From the IMG/VR virus record IMGVR_UViG_3300042876_000902, positions 17,969-81,968 of that record: a stretch of DNA of 64,000 nucleotides. One strand, written 5' to 3'. The stretch comes from a virus. A model generated the notes under the pieces. The model was not told the DNA's origin and searched no databases. It worked only from the letters and a program-made list of their open reading frames with translations. The translations under genes and the position numbers were made by a program. Positions 26,753 through 63,676 of the stretch are shown in pieces; within the stretch, counting starts at the first letter, position 1, and each line of letters starts with the position of its first letter.

Positions 26753-26812
26753 CACGAACAACCGACCGCCGTCATCAATGCGGAACCTGGCTGATCGCAC
26801 AACCATGGACAC

Positions 26813-26846
26813 AAAAAGAGCCCCGCGGGCCGGGGCCCCGGGGCTC
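26813..26846 (-). terminator. Rho-independent terminator
   Basis: On the - strand GAGCCCCG ... CGGGGCTC (8 bp, extendable through a GC-rich inner part) is followed by five T. No protein gene ends just upstream of it, so it terminates a non-coding transcript or is a second safeguard. Confidence 0.8.
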
Positions 26847-27104
26847 GCCTGATCGGGTTCCCTCCTTCGGGGGAGGTCTGGGAGGACCCGGGGGGAACGG
26901 GCGGATCCGGGGGACGAGCCCCGCCCGGCGGACCCGCGGGAAGGGCCCTAGGCGCCCCGCCCGCGGGCGATCGGCCGGAGGGGCGGGGTACCCTACCGCC
27001 CCGCCCCTCCGGCGCTCCGGAGCGGCTCCGGTAGCGTCCCGATCAGGCTCCCCCGAAGGAGGGGGAGGCGCCCGGGAGCCCGGAATCGCACAACGGCGGA
27101 CGTG
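26847..27104 (-). ncRNA. Candidate structured small RNA between two terminators
   Basis: This 258-bp GC-rich stretch has no credible ORF and lies between two strong leftward terminators, so anything ending at 26813 would be non-coding. It holds CCTGATCGGG (26848-26857) and CTCCTTCGGGGGAG (26862-26875), with perfect reverse complements in the same order at 27038-27047 and 27048-27061, which would pair as a pseudoknot. A 36-bp segment (26939-26974) recurs inverted at 63271-63306. No clear promoter was found. The surrounding gap (26690-27140) holds nothing else. Confidence 0.4.
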
Positions 27105-42036: not shown

Positions 42037-42372
42037 CTACTTCGTGGTCTCCGCTCCGATCCGCAGCCGGTCGCACGTCGACCGGGTCTCGCGGGCCTTC
42101 GACTCCTCCGCCGTGCGCGCCGGACCCTCCGGGCAGACGCAGTAGGCGTCGGCCCCGCAGTACAAGCACCCGCCGTCGCGCGGGTCCTCGGGCATCGTGA
42201 AGTTCTTGAAGAGCAGCGTCTTGCTGTTGTGAACCAGCTCCGCCGCAGCCTTGAGGCAGGTGGCGCAGACGTTCACGACCTTCGTCGACTCCGTCGCGAA
42301 CTTCACGTCGTGTCTCTTGCAGAGTGCCATGCCGTTGGCCTGGAGGTGCCTCTTCGTCGTCCTCGTCGTCAT
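42037..42372 (-). CDS. Zinc-ribbon protein downstream of the large RNA candidate
   Basis: 111 aa. ALCKRHDVKFATES, VVNVCATCLKAAAEL and CLYCGADAYCVCPEG give several Cys pairs. First protein gene downstream of the ~0.85-kb structured region. Unknown role. Confidence 0.65.
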   Translation of the reverse strand: MTTRTTKRHLQANGMALCKRHDVKFATESTKVVNVCATCLKAAAELVHNSKTLLFKNFTMPEDPRDGGCLYCGADAYCVCPEGPARTAEESKARETRSTCDRLRIGAETTK

Positions 42373-42399
42373 ATGCAGTCTCTCCGCACGCCGCGCTCG

Positions 42400-43228
42400 C
42401 GCCCGCGACGTATTAGAAGGATCGCGCGATCTATGGATCGCGCGCGCGCGAGACGTCGTCGGACACCCCGAGCCACAACCGCCCGTGGTCGCATCCAGGC
42501 ACCGTCATCGGTGTGGGTCGGGGTGTCCGACGGCGGGGCGAGTCGTTGTCACTCGCCCTTCACCGTCACCGCTTCCAAGGTCACCTTTCGGTTTCCACGC
42601 TCGGCCTCACGTTGACGAGGACTGGGGTCGCACCCGGTGAAGTTCCCGGATCCCAGTGTCGTTAGGGAGGAGTCTCACTCTCCTCCACCGCAACGCTCAG
42701 CTACCGCGCTCCTTGGCCATCGACTTCAGGGACGTCCTCTCACGTTCCGCCGGGACCGACCCGGCCGCCCTCGCGCGTTCCTTTCTTCTCCCGCCCGCCC
42801 GACCGTGTACGTAAGGGCATCGCCGCTGTGGGCTTGACGCTCGGTCGCTCGTGAGTGGGGTGAAGAGGGGCGTGCCTGGTGGGCACGCCGCGCTCGTCGA
42901 AGGACACGTTCTCGCTCGTGCCCGCGCCCCGTGTCGTGGGGAGACGCCGCAGTCCGCGGTATGGCGCCGTACGCTCCGGCGTTCGCCACCCGGCCCCACA
43001 AGCTGGGGTCCACCGGTGGCTATCTCGGGGTTAGTGGCTCGGCGGACGGGAGGGCACTCCATTTCGCGCTCTCTCCCGGGTCCGCAGCGGATGTCTTTCG
43101 CCTCGCACTCGGACCGTACTAGCCACACAGGCTTAAGGTCCCTTCGCATTCCGCACTAGGTGCGGTGAGGTTACTCGGCCGCTTCGCGGTCGCCCCGACC
43201 GGCCCCCCGACCTATCCCGGGACCGGCG
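42400..43228 (-). ncRNA. Candidate large structured non-coding RNA (~0.83 kb)
   Basis: A 984-bp gap (42373-43356) interrupts otherwise wall-to-wall genes and has no ORF with coding-like composition. Transcribed from the candidate promoter at 43234-43264 it would fold extensively. Perfect stems include 43151-43165 (CCGCAC/GTGCGG), 42985-43020 (GCCACC/GGTGGC), 42869-42889 (GGCGTGCC/GGCACGCC), 42749-42765, 42666-42686, 42536-42558 (GGGCGAGT/ACTCGCCC) and 42423-42444 (9 bp). A 14-bp stem (42458-42471 with 42518-42531, extendable with one wobble) closes a multibranch domain. Size and setting resemble phage GOLLD or ROOL RNAs; sequence identity to either could not be judged. Confidence 0.65.
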
Positions 43229-43233
43229 ATCCG

Positions 43234-43264
43234 ACTCTAGCGGGATCGTGAGTACACCGGTCAA
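43234..43264 (-). promoter_or_regulatory. Candidate promoter for the large RNA
   Basis: The - strand reads TTGACC, 19 bp, TAGAGT, preceded by CGC (GCTAGAGT core). Transcription would start near 43226. The -35 is the best match to the consensus among the window's promoter candidates; the spacer is slightly long. Confidence 0.5.
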
Positions 43265-43294
43265 GTCTTTTTCAGGTTCCCTCGAAGGTACTGC

Positions 43295-43333
43295 CTCCTT
43301 CGGGGGAGGCGGGCGAGCGCTCCCCCGAAGGAG
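43295..43333. terminator. 14-bp perfect hairpin after the methyltransferase operon
   Basis: CTCCTTCGGGGGAG (43295-43308), an 11-nt loop and its exact reverse complement (43320-43333), placed 23 bases after the methyltransferase stop (43357). There is no T-tract directly after it on the - strand. The arm sequence also occurs twice in the 26.9-27.1 kb non-coding region. Confidence 0.6.
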
Positions 43334-43356
43334 TCATGCGCATCACGCGCGGGCGC

Positions 43357-44160
43357 CTACGCGCGGCGGAGCACCCACGCGCAGTTGCTCGATGCCTGCG
43401 GGTACTTCGGCGCGAGGAAGTTGGCGAGCACCTCCCACGGATACCAGGTCAGCAGCTCCTCCACGAGCTTGCGCTCGTCGGGCGTCATCACCTTCTTCAT
43501 CGCGTTCGCGGTCATGAAGGTGCCGTGGACGCGCTCGACCCGGAGCCCGACCGACTCGATGTAGTATCGCAGCTCGTCGAAGCGGTACTCGTGGATGTGG
43601 TTCGCCGCCATGTGCTTCTCGTTGTAGACGGGCGTCGAGAGGAGCGCCGTGCCGTCCGGCTTCAGCACGCCGCGGATCCCCTGAAGCAGCTTGATGCCGT
43701 CGGTGACCCCCATGTGCTCGATCGCCTCGAAGCAGGTGACGAGGTCGAACGGTCCCGGCGCCCGCGCTGCGCGCTCGGTCCCGTCAGAGAGGAGCGGTTT
43801 CATCAGCTCCTTCCACCGGCTCGTGAAGTCGAACTCGTCAAACACTCGAGTCCACGCGATGCCCGGCTTCTTCGGGATGCGGTCGACGTCGACCCCGACG
43901 TACAGCTCGGGGACCGTCGTCAGCGTGTGGAGCAGCACCTTCGGCATCATGACGTCCGGGCCACAGCCGACGTCGAGGACCCGCATCCCCTGCCGGACGA
44001 AGCGGACCGCGTAACTCCACCGGAACCAGTGGGCGGCGTAGTCCCGGTGGACGTACTTCCCGTGCACCCCGCCCTCGCGGAGCGAGGTGGAGTCGAAGCG
44101 CCGCGCCTCACGCTTCGTCGACGGGTGAGGCTTCGGCGCTGGCCAGCTCTTCTTGCTCAT
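43357..44160 (-). CDS. Class I SAM-dependent methyltransferase
   Basis: 267 aa from ATG 44160. Motif I is MRVLDVGCGPDVMMPKVLL (59-77), then YVGVDVD, DLVTCFEAIEHMG and a KPDGTALLSTPVYN segment, as in Methyltransf_11-like enzymes. The substrate is unknown (small molecule, glycan or nucleotide). It forms an operon with two cytosine-MTase-family genes upstream. Confidence 0.8.
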   Translation of the reverse strand: MSKKSWPAPKPHPSTKREARRFDSTSLREGGVHGKYVHRDYAAHWFRWSYAVRFVRQGMRVLDVGCGPDVMMPKVLLHTLTTVPELYVGVDVDRIPKKPGIAWTRVFDEFDFTSRWKELMKPLLSDGTERAARAPGPFDLVTCFEAIEHMGVTDGIKLLQGIRGVLKPDGTALLSTPVYNEKHMAANHIHEYRFDELRYYIESVGLRVERVHGTFMTANAMKKVMTPDERKLVEELLTWYPWEVLANFLAPKYPQASSNCAWVLRRA

Positions 44161-52128: not shown

Positions 52129-54330
52129 TCAGAACTTCTTGGCACGCTTCTTCGGCGGCTCCTCCGGGGCGAACCCCTCCTTCCGCAGCTCATCCTCCAC
52201 GTGCTTCTGCACCCCGTCCCGCCCGGCGGCGTTCCACTTCTGGGCGTTCTTCACCCGGATGACGTAGCCCTTCCACGTCCGGCCGAAGACCTTGAGCGGC
52301 ACGGCGCTCGCCCGCGGGAACCTCATCTGCTGGAGGAGGACGCCCATCGCGTTCACCGTCACCGGCTCCTTCTTGCGAACGCGGTCGAAGAACGTGACGA
52401 CCTCCGACGAGGTGTAGATGTCCCTGGTCAGCGCGCCGTTCGCGCCCCAGAGCACGGAGTCGGGGTCCTCGCGGAGCGCGGCGAGGAACTGCGCGGCCTC
52501 GCTGCGGGTCGCGCCGATCATCTCCTCCTTGCTCTCGGTCATCGGGGCCCAGCCCGTCGGCTCGAAGGCGTCCAGGTTCACCTCGTGCCGGAAGTGCCAG
52601 AGCAGGTGGCTCGGCCCGCCGCCCGCGAGCCACTCGTAGTACCTCCGCCAGAACGGTCCGCACTCCCGGCAGCGGTCGACCTCTGCCTGCGTCATGTGGA
52701 AGTCGCGGCCGCAGATGGCCTTGAGGATCTGGTGGATGGCGAAGCGGCGGTCGCCCTCGTCGACGCGGAGGACGTTGGGGCGGTTGGACGTCTCGTAGAA
52801 GTTGGCGTGGTCAGGGAGCGGATACTGCGGGACGTGCTTGACGTTGCACTGCAGGAACTCCTCCGTGATGAGCTTCTTCAGGATGTCGACCTTCCGCTGG
52901 GCATCGGACCCGGTCATGTCATCGATCATCACGAACTGCTTGCCGATGGCCCACCAGTTGAAGTCCGATTCGAGGTCGTTCTGGTTGATCTCGCTGTAGT
53001 TGTTCCCGTAGATGAGCCCGAGGGTCTTCCCGATCACCGACTTCCCGACGCCCTGCCCGTGCGACCAGATGCAGAGCGAGGTGTTCAGCTTCCCGGCCTC
53101 CGGGTGGGCGATGGGCCAGGCAAACCACTTCTCTCCCCACCTCCGCATCTCGGGCGACCCGTCGAAGACCCGGTCGAGGAGGTCCGTCCACGGGCCCACG
53201 TCGCCCTTCTCCTCCTCGACGCCCCAGCCGCCCCACGTGTTGTAGCAGTCGCCGACGATCCTCGGCTGCCCCGGCGCGTAGGTCGCGAAGGAGTGCTCGC
53301 GGCGCATCGGCCAGTCCGCCCACTCGAACGCCACCTTGACGTCCTGCAGCTTCGGCCGCCCGTCCTCCTCCACGCTGACGATCTTCTTCGCCCACACGTT
53401 CGAGTAGTGGACGTTCTTGAAGTCGGAGAGGGCCATCTGCGGCGTGTTCCTCCACCGCTTCTGGGTCGGGTCGTGCAGCTCCTCGACCGCCCGCTCGTCG
53501 ATGACGAAGCCGGGGTGCTTGATCATCACGAAGCGCGAGTTGAACTCCCACAGCTTCCGGGCGAGGTCGTCGGGCACGGCGTCGTCGAGCAGCCGCTGGA
53601 ACTCCTCGTCACCCTCGGCCACGAGGAAGTCGTCGAGCCCCGTCTTCTCCACGTCGGGGAGGTCGGGGAGGTTCACGACGGCGGTGGTCGCGCCCTCCTG
53701 CGTGATGGTGTTCGTGAAGCGTACCATCGCCCGCATGACGGCGGGCTTCCGGGCGGCGTCGGCGTCGAAGACCAGGTACACCTGACGCCCGAGCCACTTC
53801 ATCTCCTTCAGCTCGGGGAGGAGCGCCCAGCCCCGCTTGCTGCTCGAGAAGCTGTCCACTCCGGGGAGGGCGAAGCAAGCGTGCCCGCGCTTGGCGGCGC
53901 AGGCACTCTTCAGCTCACCCTCTGTCACGACGATGGGGACGCTCGTGTCCTTCGCCACCTTCTCCCAGTTCACGAGGCGCGGGAAGTAGGCCGCGGGCGG
54001 GCACCCGACCGGCCGGATGTACCGCTTCTGCCCGTCCTTGCTCAGGTCGGCGAACCCCTCCACCGGGTACTCGCCCAGGAGCCGCACGCAGCAGACCCCG
54101 CGGCGCGGCTCGCCCGCGAGGTTGTGGTACTGGATCTTCAGGCCCGGCATGTCGGGCACGCCCTTGTTCTTCGCGAGGACCAGCTTCACCTCCTTGATCG
54201 TCAGCACCTCGATGCCGAGGAGCTTCGCGTCCTTCGTGTCGAGGCCCGAGCTTGCCAGCTTCGCAGCCGCGAGCGCGCCGGGCGTTCCCTTCCCCTCCCG
54301 CTGCTTCGCCACCTTGCCCTCCTCGCTCAT
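52129..54330 (-). CDS. Primase-helicase (TOPRIM-like + superfamily 3-like ATPase)
   Basis: 733 aa. N-terminal DUF3854/TOPRIM-like domain: VPIVVTEGELKSACAAKRG (Glu137), LPGVDSF and VYLVFDADA (Asp189/191). C-terminal ATPase: Walker A SHGQGVGKSVIGKT (423-436), Walker B QFVMIDDMTG (465-474), ETSNRPNVLRVDEGDRRF with an Arg-finger-like region. The Lys/Arg tail may bind DNA. It probably unwinds and primes at the phage origin. Next gene is the sigma factor, overlapping by 4 bases. Confidence 0.85.
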   Translation of the reverse strand: MSEEGKVAKQREGKGTPGALAAAKLASSGLDTKDAKLLGIEVLTIKEVKLVLAKNKGVPDMPGLKIQYHNLAGEPRRGVCCVRLLGEYPVEGFADLSKDGQKRYIRPVGCPPAAYFPRLVNWEKVAKDTSVPIVVTEGELKSACAAKRGHACFALPGVDSFSSSKRGWALLPELKEMKWLGRQVYLVFDADAARKPAVMRAMVRFTNTITQEGATTAVVNLPDLPDVEKTGLDDFLVAEGDEEFQRLLDDAVPDDLARKLWEFNSRFVMIKHPGFVIDERAVEELHDPTQKRWRNTPQMALSDFKNVHYSNVWAKKIVSVEEDGRPKLQDVKVAFEWADWPMRREHSFATYAPGQPRIVGDCYNTWGGWGVEEEKGDVGPWTDLLDRVFDGSPEMRRWGEKWFAWPIAHPEAGKLNTSLCIWSHGQGVGKSVIGKTLGLIYGNNYSEINQNDLESDFNWWAIGKQFVMIDDMTGSDAQRKVDILKKLITEEFLQCNVKHVPQYPLPDHANFYETSNRPNVLRVDEGDRRFAIHQILKAICGRDFHMTQAEVDRCRECGPFWRRYYEWLAGGGPSHLLWHFRHEVNLDAFEPTGWAPMTESKEEMIGATRSEAAQFLAALREDPDSVLWGANGALTRDIYTSSEVVTFFDRVRKKEPVTVNAMGVLLQQMRFPRASAVPLKVFGRTWKGYVIRVKNAQKWNAAGRDGVQKHVEDELRKEGFAPEEPPKKRAKKF

Positions 54331-55040
54331 CTCCGCTCCCCGACCTGCCGCCCGTCCACGATGACCCGCTCGATGCGCTCCTTCAGCCTCTTCTCGACCT
54401 GTCTCACCCGCTCGCGGGACACGCCGTGATCCTTCCCGATCTCCGCCAGCGACAGTGGCGCGTCGCTCAGGAGCCGCCGCGCCACGATGTCAAGCTCGAG
54501 CGCGCTGTGCGCCGAGATGTTCGACGCCCACACCACCTCGCCGCGCCGCTCCAGCGCCTCGGCCGCCTCCAGCGGCGACGGGCCGCCGTCCTCGATGATC
54601 TCGAAGCGCGACAGCTCGACCCCGTCCTCGGTCACCGTGTTCGGGACCAGCGACAGGTTGGCCAGCTTCATCCGGTCGACCGACCCGCCGAAGGGGAGCC
54701 GGTGCCGCGTCACCGCCATCGCGACGTAGGCCCGGATCCAGTTCTGCGCGTACGACGCGAACCGCACACCGCGCCCCGCGTCGAAGCGGTCCGCCGCGAC
54801 GCACAGACCAAGCACGCCCTCGTGGGCGAGGTCCGCCACCCGGATGCCCGGCGTCCTCGCGTACGGCTTGAGGACGAAGATGACGAGGCGCAGGTTGTGC
54901 TCGATGAGGAGCTTCCGCGCCCATCGGTCCCCGGCCGCCACCCGGCGGGCCAGCTCGACCTCCTCCTCTTTGCTCAGCACGTGCCTCGACGCCGCCATCT
55001 TGGCGAAGCGCTTGAAGCTCGGGTCGTCCCAGACGTTCAT
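54327..55040 (-). CDS. Phage-encoded sigma-70 family factor
   Basis: 237 aa from ATG 55040. Region 1.2/2: SKEEEVELARRVAAGDRWAR, LLIEHNLRLVIFVLKPYART, then VADLAHEGVLGLCVAADRFD and VRFASYAQNWIRAYV. Region 4: LSLAEIGKDHGVSRERVRQV, EKRLKERIERV. The whole protein resembles a short RpoH-like sigma factor lacking regions 1.1 and most of 3. It could redirect host RNA polymerase to middle or late phage promoters. No anti-sigma partner was identified. Confidence 0.87.
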   Translation of the reverse strand: MNVWDDPSFKRFAKMAASRHVLSKEEEVELARRVAAGDRWARKLLIEHNLRLVIFVLKPYARTPGIRVADLAHEGVLGLCVAADRFDAGRGVRFASYAQNWIRAYVAMAVTRHRLPFGGSVDRMKLANLSLVPNTVTEDGVELSRFEIIEDGGPSPLEAAEALERRGEVVWASNISAHSALELDIVARRLLSDAPLSLAEIGKDHGVSRERVRQVEKRLKERIERVIVDGRQVGERR

Positions 55041-55264
55041 CCCGCCCTCCCCTTCGTCCACAGCGGCGGGTCCAACGGCCGCCTCGGCTCCGCCCTCTTC
55101 GCTCCCATGTCGATGAAGACCCGGAGGTCGCAACTGCACCGGGGGCAGCGGGCGTGCCCCGCGACCCCCGGCTTGGGCCGGACCGTCATCACCTCGCCCT
55201 TGCAGCGGAAGCAGAGGACGACGCACGGCTCGCCCTCCACCTCCCTGACCCGCCCCCTCGCCAC
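55037..55264 (-). CDS. Small zinc-ribbon protein upstream of the sigma factor
   Basis: 75 aa from GTG 55264. LCFRCKGEVMTVRP and HARCPRCSCDLRVFID form a four-Cys ribbon. Overlaps the sigma-factor start. An anti-sigma or RNA-polymerase-binding role is conceivable; not supported further. Confidence 0.6.
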   Translation of the reverse strand: MARGRVREVEGEPCVVLCFRCKGEVMTVRPKPGVAGHARCPRCSCDLRVFIDMGAKRAEPRRPLDPPLWTKGRAG

Positions 55265-55267
55265 GCT

Positions 55268-55870
55268 CTATCCCACCGAGACGGCGCGGCTGAGCCCGAG
55301 GCGCTTGTACGCCGCGCAGACGGCACGGGCTTGGCGCCGGGCGTCGTGGAGCGCATCGTGTATCACCTCGCCCTCCTGCACCGGCCCGGCCAGCTCGTCG
55401 ATCACCTTGGCGGCGTCGACCTCCGGGCAGGCGAGGGCGAAGAGGGTCCGGGTGTCTCGCGGCGCCCGGTAGTGCCACGGCACGGAGAGCTTCGTCTGGC
55501 GGAAGGCGTCCTCCAGGATCGCCACGTCGAAGAGGATGCCGTGAGCCCAGACGCCCTCGACCCTCCGCTCGCCGAAGACGTCCTGCATCCAGACGCGGAG
55601 GTCGACGAGTGCGTCCATGAGGTCGCTCGTCGAGAGGCCCCACGGCCCCGCCCGCGGCGACCACGCGGAGAGCCGCGCCTCCTCCTTCTGCGTCATCCCC
55701 CACATCACCGTGTCGCCGTCGACCTCCCGGTTCTGCTGCGGCTTCACCCGCTCCTTGAACTCCCGGCCGAGCTTCCCCTCGACCGGGCAGAACTCCACCG
55801 CCCCGATCTGCAGGATGCCCGCTCGCGCCGTCTTGCCCGTCGTCTCCAGGTCCACCATCACGTGGTTCAC
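55268..55870 (-). CDS. DEDD-type 3'-5' exonuclease
   Basis: 200 aa from GTG 55870. MVDLETTGKTARAGILQIGA (Asp7, Glu9), VWAHGILFDVAILEDAF (Asp near 113) and HDALHDARRQARAV (His-Asp) mark a DEDDh exonuclease like DnaQ/RNase T or T4 DexA. It probably trims DNA or RNA; substrate not predictable. Confidence 0.82.
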   Translation of the reverse strand: MNHVMVDLETTGKTARAGILQIGAVEFCPVEGKLGREFKERVKPQQNREVDGDTVMWGMTQKEEARLSAWSPRAGPWGLSTSDLMDALVDLRVWMQDVFGERRVEGVWAHGILFDVAILEDAFRQTKLSVPWHYRAPRDTRTLFALACPEVDAAKVIDELAGPVQEGEVIHDALHDARRQARAVCAAYKRLGLSRAVSVG

Positions 55871-59974: not shown

Positions 59975-60424
59975 CTAGAGCCCTCCGCGCTGACGGTTCA
60001 GCTCGGCCACCGCCTCGGTCATCTGCTCGAGGGTCACCTTGCATCCGGTGAGGCGCTCGTAGGCAGCGAGGCCTTCCTCCACCTCGCGACGGGCCGCGAG
60101 CTTGGACGCCACCGCCCGCTCCAGCTCGGTCGTGGCGCGCTCGACGTCGCCCTCGCAGGAGCGGAGCATGCTGACCCGACCGTTGAGGCGTCGCAGGACG
60201 TCGAGGTCCGCCGCCAGGTTGTGCTCGGGAGCGGGCTTCGGGTTGATGCACTCGCTCGAGATGGCGTGGATCCCCGAGTGATTCAGGTTGCCACACCGGC
60301 CACCGGCCACGGGCCCGTACGGCGAAGTGATGTGATGCGGGTTCATGCAGTCCGGCGAGTGCGGGTGCGGCATGCACCCATGAACCGCGTTGCTACAAAC
60401 GACCATCGGTGTTCCGTTCGACAT
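59975..60424 (-). CDS. Unknown protein, first gene of the leftward early block
   Basis: 149 aa from ATG 60424 (GAGGGAG upstream). Cys/His-rich N-terminal half (CSNAVHGCMPHPHSPDCMNP) and a C-terminal coiled coil (RATTELERAVASKLAARREV). As the first gene leaving the control region it may be expressed very early. Confidence 0.65.
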   Translation of the reverse strand: MSNGTPMVVCSNAVHGCMPHPHSPDCMNPHHITSPYGPVAGGRCGNLNHSGIHAISSECINPKPAPEHNLAADLDVLRRLNGRVSMLRSCEGDVERATTELERAVASKLAARREVEEGLAAYERLTGCKVTLEQMTEAVAELNRQRGGL

Positions 60425-60951
60425 ACACGCTCCCTCGGTTCAGCCATGACAAGGCCACGCCGCGAGGAAGCGGTGCCGTTGGACTGCGCCGTCGCCCCTC
60501 AGCCAGAGTTGCTCCCCGCGGCGCCCCACGTTCACACCCGTCAGCCACGGATGCGTTATGTAGACGTCGGTCGGGCCGGGTCACGCTTGGCTGAGGAGCG
60601 AGCACCGAGAAAGAGGAGCTGCCCGACCCGACCGACGAAGCTGGACCGTAGCCGGTCCGCCGCCAAGAAGTAAACCATCAAGATCGGATCGCTGGAACGA
60701 CTCGGAAGATGATTGTCCAGAAGAATGAGCCAGACGGGAGGGGGTGCGGTATGAGGCGGAGCCGACCCTGGTTTGGAGTGAGCACGTACGGAGCGTCGAG
60801 CGGCGGGAGAGGAGTGGCGCGGCGCGCCCATCAACGGTGAGTGTGCCAGTACGGTGCGTCCGATCAGGACTGGTAGTTGAATGCGGCGTTTTGCAGGGCT
60901 TTTCGATGTCCGCTTCAGCGGACGATCTCGAAATGTCCAACCAGTTAGGAC
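60425..60951. other. Non-coding leader of the leftward block
   Basis: No convincing gene: the overlapping open frames have low-quality composition. Transcription of the early block must start here. A weak - strand promoter-like pair (GTGACC, 16 bp, TACATA; about 60557-60584) is the best candidate seen. Confidence 0.4.
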
Positions 60952-61255
60952 GGTTACGACGGGTTTCGACCTTGTACGTGGGGTCGTAACCGGCGATCTG
61001 ACCGCTGGGAGAGAGGGGAAACGATGTCGTGAGGTTACGACGTTTCGACTTTTCGCCAAGGTATTCCTATAGGAGGAGGGTATGTAGAGAGAGTTCTTCT
61101 CGCATATAAGTTGGAAGAAAGTCGAAACGTCGTAACCGTGCGATGCTATTTTCGTTGGCAGAGAGGGCGCTCCGCGCCGGTTACGACCTCCCGCCGCAGT
61201 CGAAACCGTCGAAACCATATCGTGAGGAAACCGCTGGGAGAGAAGCGGTTACGAC
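60952..61255. repeat. Iteron cluster, candidate replication origin
   Basis: GGTTACGAC occurs six times in 304 bp: + at 60952, 61033, 61179, 61247; - at 60983, 61129. GTTTCGAC/GTCGAAAC occurs five times (60963, 61042, 61121, 61199, 61208), and the 14-mer ACCGCTGGGAGAGA twice (61001, 61230). No good ORF crosses it. It lies at the divergence point of the two transcription directions, as phage origins or master operators often do. Confidence 0.6.
61033..61137. repeat. Perfect 20-bp inverted repeat in the iteron cluster
   Basis: Left arm 61033-61052 (GGTTACGACGTTTCGACTTT) and its exact reverse complement at 61118-61137 flank a 65-bp, less GC-rich spacer containing TATTCCTATAGGAGG and GCATATAAG. 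The arms combine both iteron types. Confidence 0.85.
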
Positions 61256-61386
61256 TAGATTGCGGACCCACAGTCGATCCCTAGAGGGTACAAGGAGTCC
61301 CTTGTGGGTAGGGGTAGGGGTGAAATGTTTTCATCTCAGAAAACACGACGCCTTCAAACGGTGCCGTTCGGACGTTGGTGATCGTG

Positions 61387-61418
61387 ATGACAGCCACTCC
61401 GCAGCAGCACGCTAGGAT
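61387..61418 (+). promoter_or_regulatory. Candidate promoter of the HNH gene
   Basis: ATGACA, 20 bp, TAGGAT with GC before the -10 (GCTAGGAT), 18 bases before the HNH start. The -10 core matches the - strand candidates at 16152, 26723 and 43234; the spacer is long. Confidence 0.4.
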
Positions 61419-61435
61419 CCTCCCGAGGAGGAGAG

Positions 61436-61825
61436 ATGCCTTTCCAAGCGAAGAGGCCGTGTGCCACGCCAGGTTGTCCTGAGCGTGTGAGCAAGGGACA
61501 TTGCGAATTGCACGCGAAGAAGCGCAGGGATGAGGCTGAGGCCAGGAGGCCGAGCGCGAGCGCCAGACTGTACGGGTCTGAGTGGCGGAAGGCTGCGCGT
61601 GAGTTCCTCGAGATCAACAGGTGGTGCGTAGGGGAGGGGATCGTCGTTGATGGTGTGAAGACAGCTCGCTGCGGTGCTCGAGCGACAGTCGTCGATCACA
61701 TCCAGCCGCACAAGGGAGATCTCACGCTGTTCTGGGACAGGAGCAACTGGCAGCCGCTGTGCAAGAGATGCCATGACAGGAAGACGGCTCGCGAGGATGG
61801 GCGCTGGGAGCCGAAGGTGTACTGA
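61436..61825 (+). CDS. HNH endonuclease
   Basis: 129 aa, with GAGGAGGAG upstream. The betabetaalpha-metal fold is seen as VVDHIQPHKGD (His88), FWDRSNWQPL (Asn104) and CKRCHDRKT (His113). Zinc-ligand-like Cys occur at RPCATPGCPE and RWC/ARC. HNH genes of this type usually lie next to the large terminase in tailed phages, so packaging genes may follow to the right of the window. Confidence 0.85.
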   Translation: MPFQAKRPCATPGCPERVSKGHCELHAKKRRDEAEARRPSASARLYGSEWRKAAREFLEINRWCVGEGIVVDGVKTARCGARATVVDHIQPHKGDLTLFWDRSNWQPLCKRCHDRKTAREDGRWEPKVY

Positions 61826-61852
61826 GGCCAGGCGGTGATCGGGTGATGATCG

Positions 61853-61887
61853 GAGCTGGGCTTGCGAAGGCCCGGCTCTTTCATTTT
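61853..61887 (+). terminator. Rho-independent terminator after the HNH gene
   Basis: GAGCTGGGC, 8-nt loop, GCCCGGCTC (9 bp with one G-U), then TTTCATTTT. Confidence 0.75.
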
Positions 61888-62010
61888 GTGAAATCACAAA
61901 TTTTAAAAATTTTTTGACGTGGTTGAAGTGCATTTCCTGAATTGGATTTCATTTCAAAACGAGAGCCTCATAGGCGACTGTGCAAAAAATGGAGGCTTGT
62001 GTTTTCGATG
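61885..62010. other. AT-rich island
   Basis: In a GC-rich genome this stretch is A/T-dominated, starting with the palindrome TTTGTGAAATCACAAA (61885-61900), then ATTTTAAAAATTTTTT and a TTGACG hexamer at 61914. It could be a DNA-unwinding element or a strong promoter region. The rest of the 61826-62441 gap has no gene. Confidence 0.5.
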
Positions 62011-62136
62011 TGTACTTGTGTTGACGCGGTGCGTCGATGCGATCGGGTAGGTCAGCCTGGACCCACCCCATTGACACTGCCCTGTGCAGGACACCCCGAA
62101 TGAGGTGCAGTGCTTGTGGGGTGCGCGACGGTGTCG

Positions 62137-62227
62137 CACCGCCAAAGAGGTGCGCAGCTTGTGAGTGACCCGAAGGCACTGGGTCGCCTGGACCCCACTG
62201 CACAAGCATAACACCTCACAAGAGGTG
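62137..62227. repeat. CACCTC-N4-GAGGTG palindromes, left group
   Basis: Palindromes at 62137-62152 (one arm imperfect) and 62212-62227 (CACCTCACAAGAGGTG). Related half-sites are scattered to about 62345. The same palindrome occurs three times near the right end (63677-63917). Confidence 0.7.
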
Positions 62228-62441
62228 CCCACAACATCTAGTGCGCACCGGTGCGCACCTCCTGGCGGGGCACCTCCAAGGTAGTGCTGCGTGCACCTCC
62301 GAAGGGGCAAAGCGGCTCGACACCCCACAAGCACTAGTCCGTTCAACGCATTTCGCGGGGTTAGCGGCTGGCACGGCAATCGCAAAGAGTTTCGCTCGTT
62401 CCCCGCCGGATAGGCCGGAGGGGACGAAACCGGAGCGTACG

Positions 62442-62543
62442 ATGTCCCCGACCGAAGGTATCGCGATGATCTCTAGCCTCCTCGGAATCCTCCCGATCGT
62501 CATCGGTCTCGGCCTCGCCGCTCTTCTCGCTACGACCCGGTAA
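62442..62543 (+). CDS. 33-aa membrane peptide
   Basis: ATG 62442 with CGGAG 6 bases upstream. The product is one hydrophobic helix (ISSLLGILPIVIGLGLAALL) with a short polar N-terminus; a second in-frame ATG lies at 62466. Unknown. Confidence 0.5.
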   Translation: MSPTEGIAMISSLLGILPIVIGLGLAALLATTR

Positions 62544-62564
62544 CGGGCTAGCCCCGGAGGTAGT

Positions 62565-63197: not shown

Positions 63198-63203
63198 CGC
63201 GTT

Positions 63204-63306
63204 CTAGGGCCCTAGCGCGAGCGCCGCGCGATCGGGAGGAGCGGGGCGCTAGGGGTCTAGCGGCTCGGTCCCGATCGCCCGCGGGCGGGGCCGCTAGGGC
63301 CCTTCC
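63204..63306. repeat. CTAG-rich region with inverted copy of the 26.9-kb element
   Basis: CTAGGGCCCTAG palindrome (63204-63215) and further CTAG sites. Positions 63271-63306, read on the - strand, match 26939-26974 at 34 of 36 bases (core GGAAGGGCCCTAG and CGCCCGCGGGCGATCGG). No ORF is credible here. Confidence 0.7.
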
Positions 63307-63400
63307 GCGCGACGTTCGCGGGAGGGATCGGGCGCCCCTTCCGCCGATCGCGAGCGCTCGCGAGCGCTAGAAGGTAGCGAGTGTGCGGGTTCCCTCGATC

Positions 63401-63506
63401 GTAGTGTCCTACACTACCTAGTGGGTGTGCCGCCAGGGCTCACCCCGTCGGTAGTGTCCTACACTACGTTCGCGGTGCTCACCCCGTTGGTAGTGTCCTA
63501 CACTAC
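63401..63506. repeat. Three GTAGTGTCCTACACTAC palindromes
   Basis: Perfect 7-bp-arm palindromes at 63401-63417, 63451-63467 and 63490-63506. The second and third lie in ~39-bp direct repeats (CCCCGTYGG before, GTTCGCGGT after). A degenerate inverted half-copy follows near 63557. Likely protein-binding sites (operator, partition or origin). Confidence 0.8.
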
Positions 63507-63676
63507 GTTCGCGGTACGCGACGTTGCGCACCCCGTTGGCGGTGCCGCCCCGTCGGACACTACGAACGGGGCGGGTCATCGTGCGGACCCCGGGTCGTGC
63601 TAACCCGGTCATTTTATTGAAGTGTCCCGATCGGGTCGTGTAGGTCGTGCGCGACCCCGGGTCGATGCGCCCGACC

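What the first reader, a model, noticed from the sequence alone, without database searches (positions are those of the whole stretch)
42400..43264. Large, highly structured non-coding RNA candidate in the early block
A ~0.98-kb gap without a credible ORF sits among overlapping genes. The - strand has a TTGACC-N19-TAGAGT promoter candidate followed by at least eight perfect stems, including a 14-bp stem (42458-42471 / 42518-42531, extendable) that closes a multibranch domain, and ends near a 9-bp hairpin (42423-42444). Large phage RNAs such as GOLLD and ROOL have this size and setting; this could be a divergent member or a new class.
Basis: partly seen in the sequence, partly recalled or inferred. 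Interest (0 to 1): 0.88.

Follow-up and report, generated by a model that had tools for sequence, protein, structure and literature searches.

The report
Orphan large phage RNA candidate
An uncultured phage carries a roughly 1,000-base stretch that codes for no protein, is unusually rich in hairpins and matches no known RNA family, so it probably makes a large structured RNA of a new family, but no relatives were found that could prove it.

Summary
Window 42373-43356 (984 bp) is the largest intergenic gap in a tightly packed minus-strand block and is clearly non-coding: no codon bias, no 3-base periodicity, no protein-family match. Eight perfect hairpins of at least 6 bp plus a ~24-nt-arm hairpin (42454-42535) exceed shuffled expectation. 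It is not a detectable GOLLD, ROOL, OLE, HEARO, intron or other Rfam family, and the phage record has no tRNA gene. Without the one long hairpin, folding energy is barely better than shuffled sequence. The promoter is weak (19-nt spacer), there is no U-tract terminator on the minus strand, and the strand is favoured but not settled. No homologue was found in 50,697 phage records, 72,556 plasmids or about 80 related phage contigs, so covariation could not be tested. As a yardstick, the RNA-seq-verified ~800-nt orphan RNA of phage ICP1 scores no better on the same statistics and also misses Rfam. Best reading: an orphan large structured phage RNA, minus strand, GOLLD/ICP1-like in setting; probability about 0.55. 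A second, shorter non-coding element (26845-27104) in the same phage shares a perfect 14-bp stem with the hairpin bordering this one.

The parts
42373..43356 (.). Non-coding gap, 984 bp, between the methyltransferase gene and a 111-aa ORF
   Evidence: Gene finder with self-trained codon usage, period-3 test, no protein-family match
42405..43233 (-). Candidate large structured RNA (~830 nt); ends approximate, strand inferred
   Evidence: Hairpin enrichment; MFE z about -2 to -4; purine-rich on this strand
43234..43264 (-). Promoter candidate TTGACC-N19-TAGAGT, preceded by an A5 tract at 43268-43272
   Evidence: Read directly; consensus scan finds no site; A5/T5 is one of only three T5 runs before position 60,000
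43292..43336 (.). 17-nt-arm hairpin at the 3' end of the methyltransferase gene; contains CTCCTTCGGGGGAG/CTCCCCCGAAGGAG, identical to the closing stem of the 26.8-27.1 kb element
   Evidence: (z -4.95)
43187..43201 (.). Perfect 6-bp hairpin
43151..43165 (.). Perfect 6-bp hairpin (pair probability 0.97)
42869..42889 (.). Perfect 8-bp hairpin
42749..42765 (.). Perfect 6-bp hairpin
42666..42686 (.). Perfect 7-bp hairpin
42536..42558 (.). Perfect 8-bp hairpin
42454..42535 (.). Long hairpin, 24-nt arms 92% complementary (14-bp perfect core); folds slightly better on + because one mismatch becomes G-U there
   Evidence: z -4.7 on -, -6.4 on +
42423..42444 (.). Perfect 9-bp hairpin near the presumed 3' end; no U-tract follows on -
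43357..44160 (-). Flanking gene: SAM-dependent methyltransferase, conserved at 38-60% identity in related phages
42037..42372 (-). Flanking gene: 111-aa cysteine-rich ORF of unknown function, no relatives found

Best explanation
The gap encodes one large (~0.75-0.85 kb) structured non-coding RNA, most likely transcribed on the minus strand together with, or from a weak promoter inside, the early-type gene block. It folds into a chain of hairpin domains and ends in a very stable 18-24-bp hairpin that would protect its 3' end. The strong hairpins at 43292-43336 and 42423-42535 would set its boundaries by processing or attenuation rather than by a canonical U-tract terminator. It would act as a stable RNA in infection in the way the orphan ICP1 RNA, GOLLD and ROOL are thought to: an RNA scaffold or assembly, not a message. 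Shown here: non-coding, hairpin-rich, no known family. Inferred: transcription, strand, ends, stability and role.
For: Non-coding by codon usage, period-3 signal and family searches. Largest gap in a block whose genes otherwise overlap. Perfect hairpins in the body 41 bp versus 14 in shuffles and 70 versus 21 in the whole gap. Whole-region MFE better than all 20 shuffles on both strands. Minus strand has A 137 > U 84 and G 254 > C 215, the same direction of skew as the minus strand of the ICP1 gap, which I take to be its transcribed strand because its neighbouring genes and its U-tract terminator lie on it. Yardstick: ICP1's expressed ~800-nt RNA (PMC7567579) gives MFE z -2.5, no hairpin excess and no Rfam hit above cut-off, so a weak z does not argue against a real large RNA.
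Against: No homologue, hence no covariation. Without the long hairpin, MFE z is only -0.8 (-) or -1.5 (+). Two of 86 coding-region windows match its hairpin excess. The promoter spacer is 19 nt and consensus scans find neither promoter nor terminator. Strand is not settled: the long hairpin folds better on +, and the only T5 run nearby is on + at the right end of the gap. No expression data.
Confidence: 0.55

Rival explanations
1. The region is a DNA element rather than an RNA gene: a recombination, replication or protein-binding region whose inverted repeats work as duplex or cruciform DNA.
For: Large perfect inverted repeats with no strand preference. The same 14-bp inverted pair CTCCTTCGGGGGAG occurs exactly twice in the window, at 26862/27048 and 43295/43320.
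Against: No iterons or AT-rich unwinding segment: direct repeats are short and weak, GC stays 62-75% across the gap, and cumulative GC skew has no turning point here. The many small hairpins across 700 bp are more RNA-like. The repeat-rich low-GC region at 60.4-62.5 kb looks more like an origin or packaging region.
Confidence: 0.15
2. The RNA is encoded on the plus strand, antisense to the block, ending at the T5 run at 43268-43272.
For: T5 is very rare in this genome; the two others before position 60,000 are at strong terminators. The long hairpin and total fold are slightly better on +. No clear minus-strand terminator.
Against: The hairpin before T5 is weak (z -0.9) and separated by about 5 nt. 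The plus strand is pyrimidine-rich, unlike typical structured RNAs (general knowledge). It would run head-on into the methyltransferase operon.
Confidence: 0.12
3. A long untranslated regulatory region (leader, attenuator or processing region) of the early operon rather than a separate RNA.
For: Lies in line between two minus-strand genes; the promoter candidate reads toward the next ORF; no terminator before the ORF at 42372.
Against: About 1 kb is far longer than known bacterial leaders (general knowledge); no riboswitch or leader family matches.
Confidence: 0.1
4. Relic of a decayed gene or acquired non-functional sequence.
For: No relatives and no conservation evidence; the gap content is not shared with related phages.
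Against: No residual codon signal or protein match in fragments of either strand. Hairpin excess would decay in neutral sequence. Other intergenic space is nearly absent.
Confidence: 0.08

Closest known systems
Vibrio phage ICP1 ~800-nt orphan ncRNA (gap between ORF139 and ORF140 in NC_015157; PMC7567579)
   Same: About 1-kb ORF-less gap in a phage gene block (1011 bp), no tRNAs, no Rfam family above cut-off, similar fold z
   Different: Expression shown by RNA-seq only for ICP1; no sequence similarity (31 of 100 shuffles align as well); the ICP1 gap holds a canonical U-tract terminator visible in its sequence
GOLLD RNA (RF02032)
   Same: Phage-encoded, over 800 nt, function unknown (PMC12286853)
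   Different: No covariance-model match; no nearby tRNA; conserved 3' domain not found
ROOL RNA (RF03087)
   Same: Large phage/prophage RNA
   Different: No covariance-model match; no tRNA island
HEARO/OLE and group I/II introns
   Same: Large structured RNAs in bacteria or mobile elements
   Different: No match among 4227 Rfam families even at E<=5 apart from miRNA-like and viral-element hits at chance level; no HNH/IscB or reverse transcriptase found in the flanking genes tested

Membership tests
GOLLD | Match to the Rfam covariance model RF02032 | tested here: not met
   No match at gathering cut-off, at E<=5 with permissive filters or at E<=1 on the whole record (no control genome rang in that tool)
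GOLLD | Location near tRNA genes | tested here: not met
   No tRNA in the window or in the other 18 kb of the record; the record may be incomplete
GOLLD | Length around or above 800 nt, phage-encoded | tested here: met
   984-bp gap in a phage record
GOLLD | Induced during lytic growth; forms a homo-oligomeric cage | not testable with these tools
   Needs RNA-seq and cryo-EM
ROOL | Match to the Rfam covariance model RF03087 | tested here: not met
   (no control genome rang)
ROOL | Near tRNA islands | tested here: not met
OLE / HEARO / group I and II introns | Match to their Rfam models | tested here: not met
   all 4227 families, E<=5
Large structured phage ncRNA (general kind) | Non-coding ~0.6-1 kb stretch in a phage genome | tested here: met
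Large structured phage ncRNA (general kind) | Conserved secondary structure supported by covariation | tested here: inconclusive
   No homologues found, so nothing to align
Large structured phage ncRNA (general kind) | Discrete abundant transcript | not testable with these tools
   No expression data

The most novel reading that the evidence does not exclude
A new family of large ornate phage RNA, unrelated in sequence to GOLLD, ROOL and the ICP1 RNA, that assembles or scaffolds during infection; the same phage also carries a second, possibly pseudoknotted non-coding element using an identical 14-bp stem, implying a shared processing or binding step.
Probability: 0.3. Interest if true: 0.7.

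Novelty: new variant of a known kind. Interest (0 to 1): 0.45.

Why it matters
Large phage RNAs of unknown function (GOLLD, ROOL, the ICP1 RNA) are among the least explained RNAs. If this one is real, it adds an independent family in a lineage without detected tRNAs and supports the idea that many phages carry such RNAs that Rfam does not yet cover. It also gives a calibration point: a verified large phage RNA (ICP1) scores weakly on single-sequence folding tests, so such tests cannot exclude candidates.

Tried and rejected
(1) Neighbour-guided search: relatives of the adjacent methyltransferase, DNA methylase and DNA polymerase were collected; about 80 phage records were searched, none with a match above chance. 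(2) Long gaps beside the methyltransferase in L088 and L143 looked like syntenic RNAs but read as protein-coding. (3) Single-sequence covariance models of a 3' (R1) and a 5' (R2) domain: the only R1 hit (L228, E 0.039) lies inside a primase/helicase-like gene and that locus had been chosen by the exact 16-mer; the R2 hit (L134, E 0.66) is chance. (4) Exact-motif scans of viral contigs: no homologue. (5) I first used RF01998 for GOLLD; it is group-II-D1D4-1. It gave only weak sub-cut-off hits, and the test was repeated with RF02032. (6) Similarity of the body to ICP1, phage K or the 26.8-27.1 kb element: at shuffle level. (7) The 150-aa ORF 42697-43149 as a gene: negative codon score, no homologues. 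(8) A gap-alignment check that seemed to beat shuffles for two regions used long gapped alignments at random-level scores and was discarded.

Full report
Setting. The window is part of an 82-kb virus record. Window 12689-60373 is a block of minus-strand genes, tightly packed (median intergenic distance -1), with helicase, thymidylate synthase, ligase, primase, sigma-factor and DNA methyltransferase genes. Its closest relatives share the methyltransferase next to the gap at 48-60% identity; isolated phages (Stenotrophomonas AXL_3, Pseudoxanthomonas PW916) share it at about 38%.

Observation. The gap 42373-43356 is 984 bp, the largest in the block (next 451). Every ORF in it scores against the phage's codon usage, its period-3 signal is lower than in all 86 coding-region windows, and fragments from both strands match no Pfam or PHROG family. 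Perfect hairpins of at least 6 bp are about three times as frequent as in shuffles; only 2 of 86 coding-region windows reach the same z.

Limits of the structural evidence. Much of the whole-region energy signal comes from one hairpin, 42454-42535. Without it z is -0.8 (-) or -1.5 (+). The stated promoter is verbatim but has a 19-nt spacer, and no consensus promoter or terminator is found nearby. Elsewhere in the block the phage does use U5 terminators (27135-27110, 26839-26817). Strand: purine excess and gene direction favour minus; the long hairpin's G-U pair and the rare T5 at 43268-43272 favour plus. I put minus at about 0.7-0.8 if an RNA exists.

Calibration. ICP1's ~1-kb ORF-less gap yields its most abundant transcript, about 800 nt, and ICP1 has no tRNAs (PMC7567579). 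The same tests on that gap (1011 bp) give MFE z about -2.5 on either strand, no hairpin excess and no Rfam hit above cut-off. The present candidate is at least as structured by these measures, so the weak z does not refute it.

Families. No Rfam family matches the window at cut-off, nor the region at E<=5 apart from chance-level hairpin models. GOLLD and ROOL models are silent over the record and 18 relatives, although no control genome rang in those two searches. There are no tRNAs.

Homologues. None in phages or plasmids, in about 80 related records by DNA, by covariance models of two sub-domains in 43 records and held loci, or by motif scans. Covariation therefore could not be tested. This is a gap in evidence, not evidence of absence: the nearest relatives are only about 60% identical in a conserved protein, and metagenome contigs could not be searched.

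A linked observation. The hairpin just outside the candidate RNA, 43292-43336, carries CTCCTTCGGGGGAG/CTCCCCCGAAGGAG. The only other copy in the window is the inverted pair 26862-26875/27048-27061. That pair closes a 260-nt non-coding element lying between two U5 terminators with MFE z about -3. It also has an 11-bp pair (26847-26857/27038-27048) that interleaves with the 16-bp pair (26860-26875/27048-27063), the geometry of a pseudoknot. About 78 nt of it recur at 81% identity at 63235-63311 on the plus strand, in a further hairpin-rich stretch. This phage may thus carry several structured non-coding elements.

Verdict. A real, clearly non-coding, hairpin-rich element, probably (0.55) a large structured RNA of no known family. 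It works like GOLLD or the ICP1 RNA only by analogy of size and setting, and it is not a member of GOLLD, ROOL, OLE or HEARO by the tests available.

Noticed in passing
window 26845-27104 (- strand): 260-nt non-coding element between two U5 terminators, MFE z about -3, with a 16-bp closing stem and an interleaved 11-bp pair (possible pseudoknot); shares a perfect 14-bp stem with the hairpin at 43292-43336. Arguably a cleaner ncRNA candidate than the given one.
   Followed up: partly
window 63200-63385 (+ strand): Hairpin-rich stretch after two terminators (z -3.8) that is 81% identical over about 78 nt to part of the 26845-27104 element: a possible paralogous structured element.
   Followed up: partly
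window 63395-63565: At least three copies of the palindrome-like motif GTAGTGTCCTACACTAC in a non-coding stretch, possibly operator sites.
   Followed up: no
window 26794-26803 and 27085-27094 (- strand): GTCC-N4-GTTGTGCGAT follows both U5 terminators at about the same distance; the 10-mer occurs nowhere else exactly in the window. Possible promoter of the phage-encoded sigma factor.
   Followed up: no
window 60374-62564: Low-GC, largely non-coding region with repeated GTTACGAC/GTCGTAAC motifs and an apparent HNH-like ORF around 61437-61825; candidate origin or packaging region.
   Followed up: no
L219 249-499: About 250 nt between two tRNA genes in another virus contig, no Rfam match, contains GGAAACCGAAAGGTGA; may be an unannotated RNA of a tRNA island, unrelated to this one beyond the motif used to fetch it.
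   Followed up: partly
window 54327-55703 (- strand): The phage encodes its own sigma-70-type factor (regions 1.2, 2 and 4), so promoters may not follow the host consensus.
   Followed up: no
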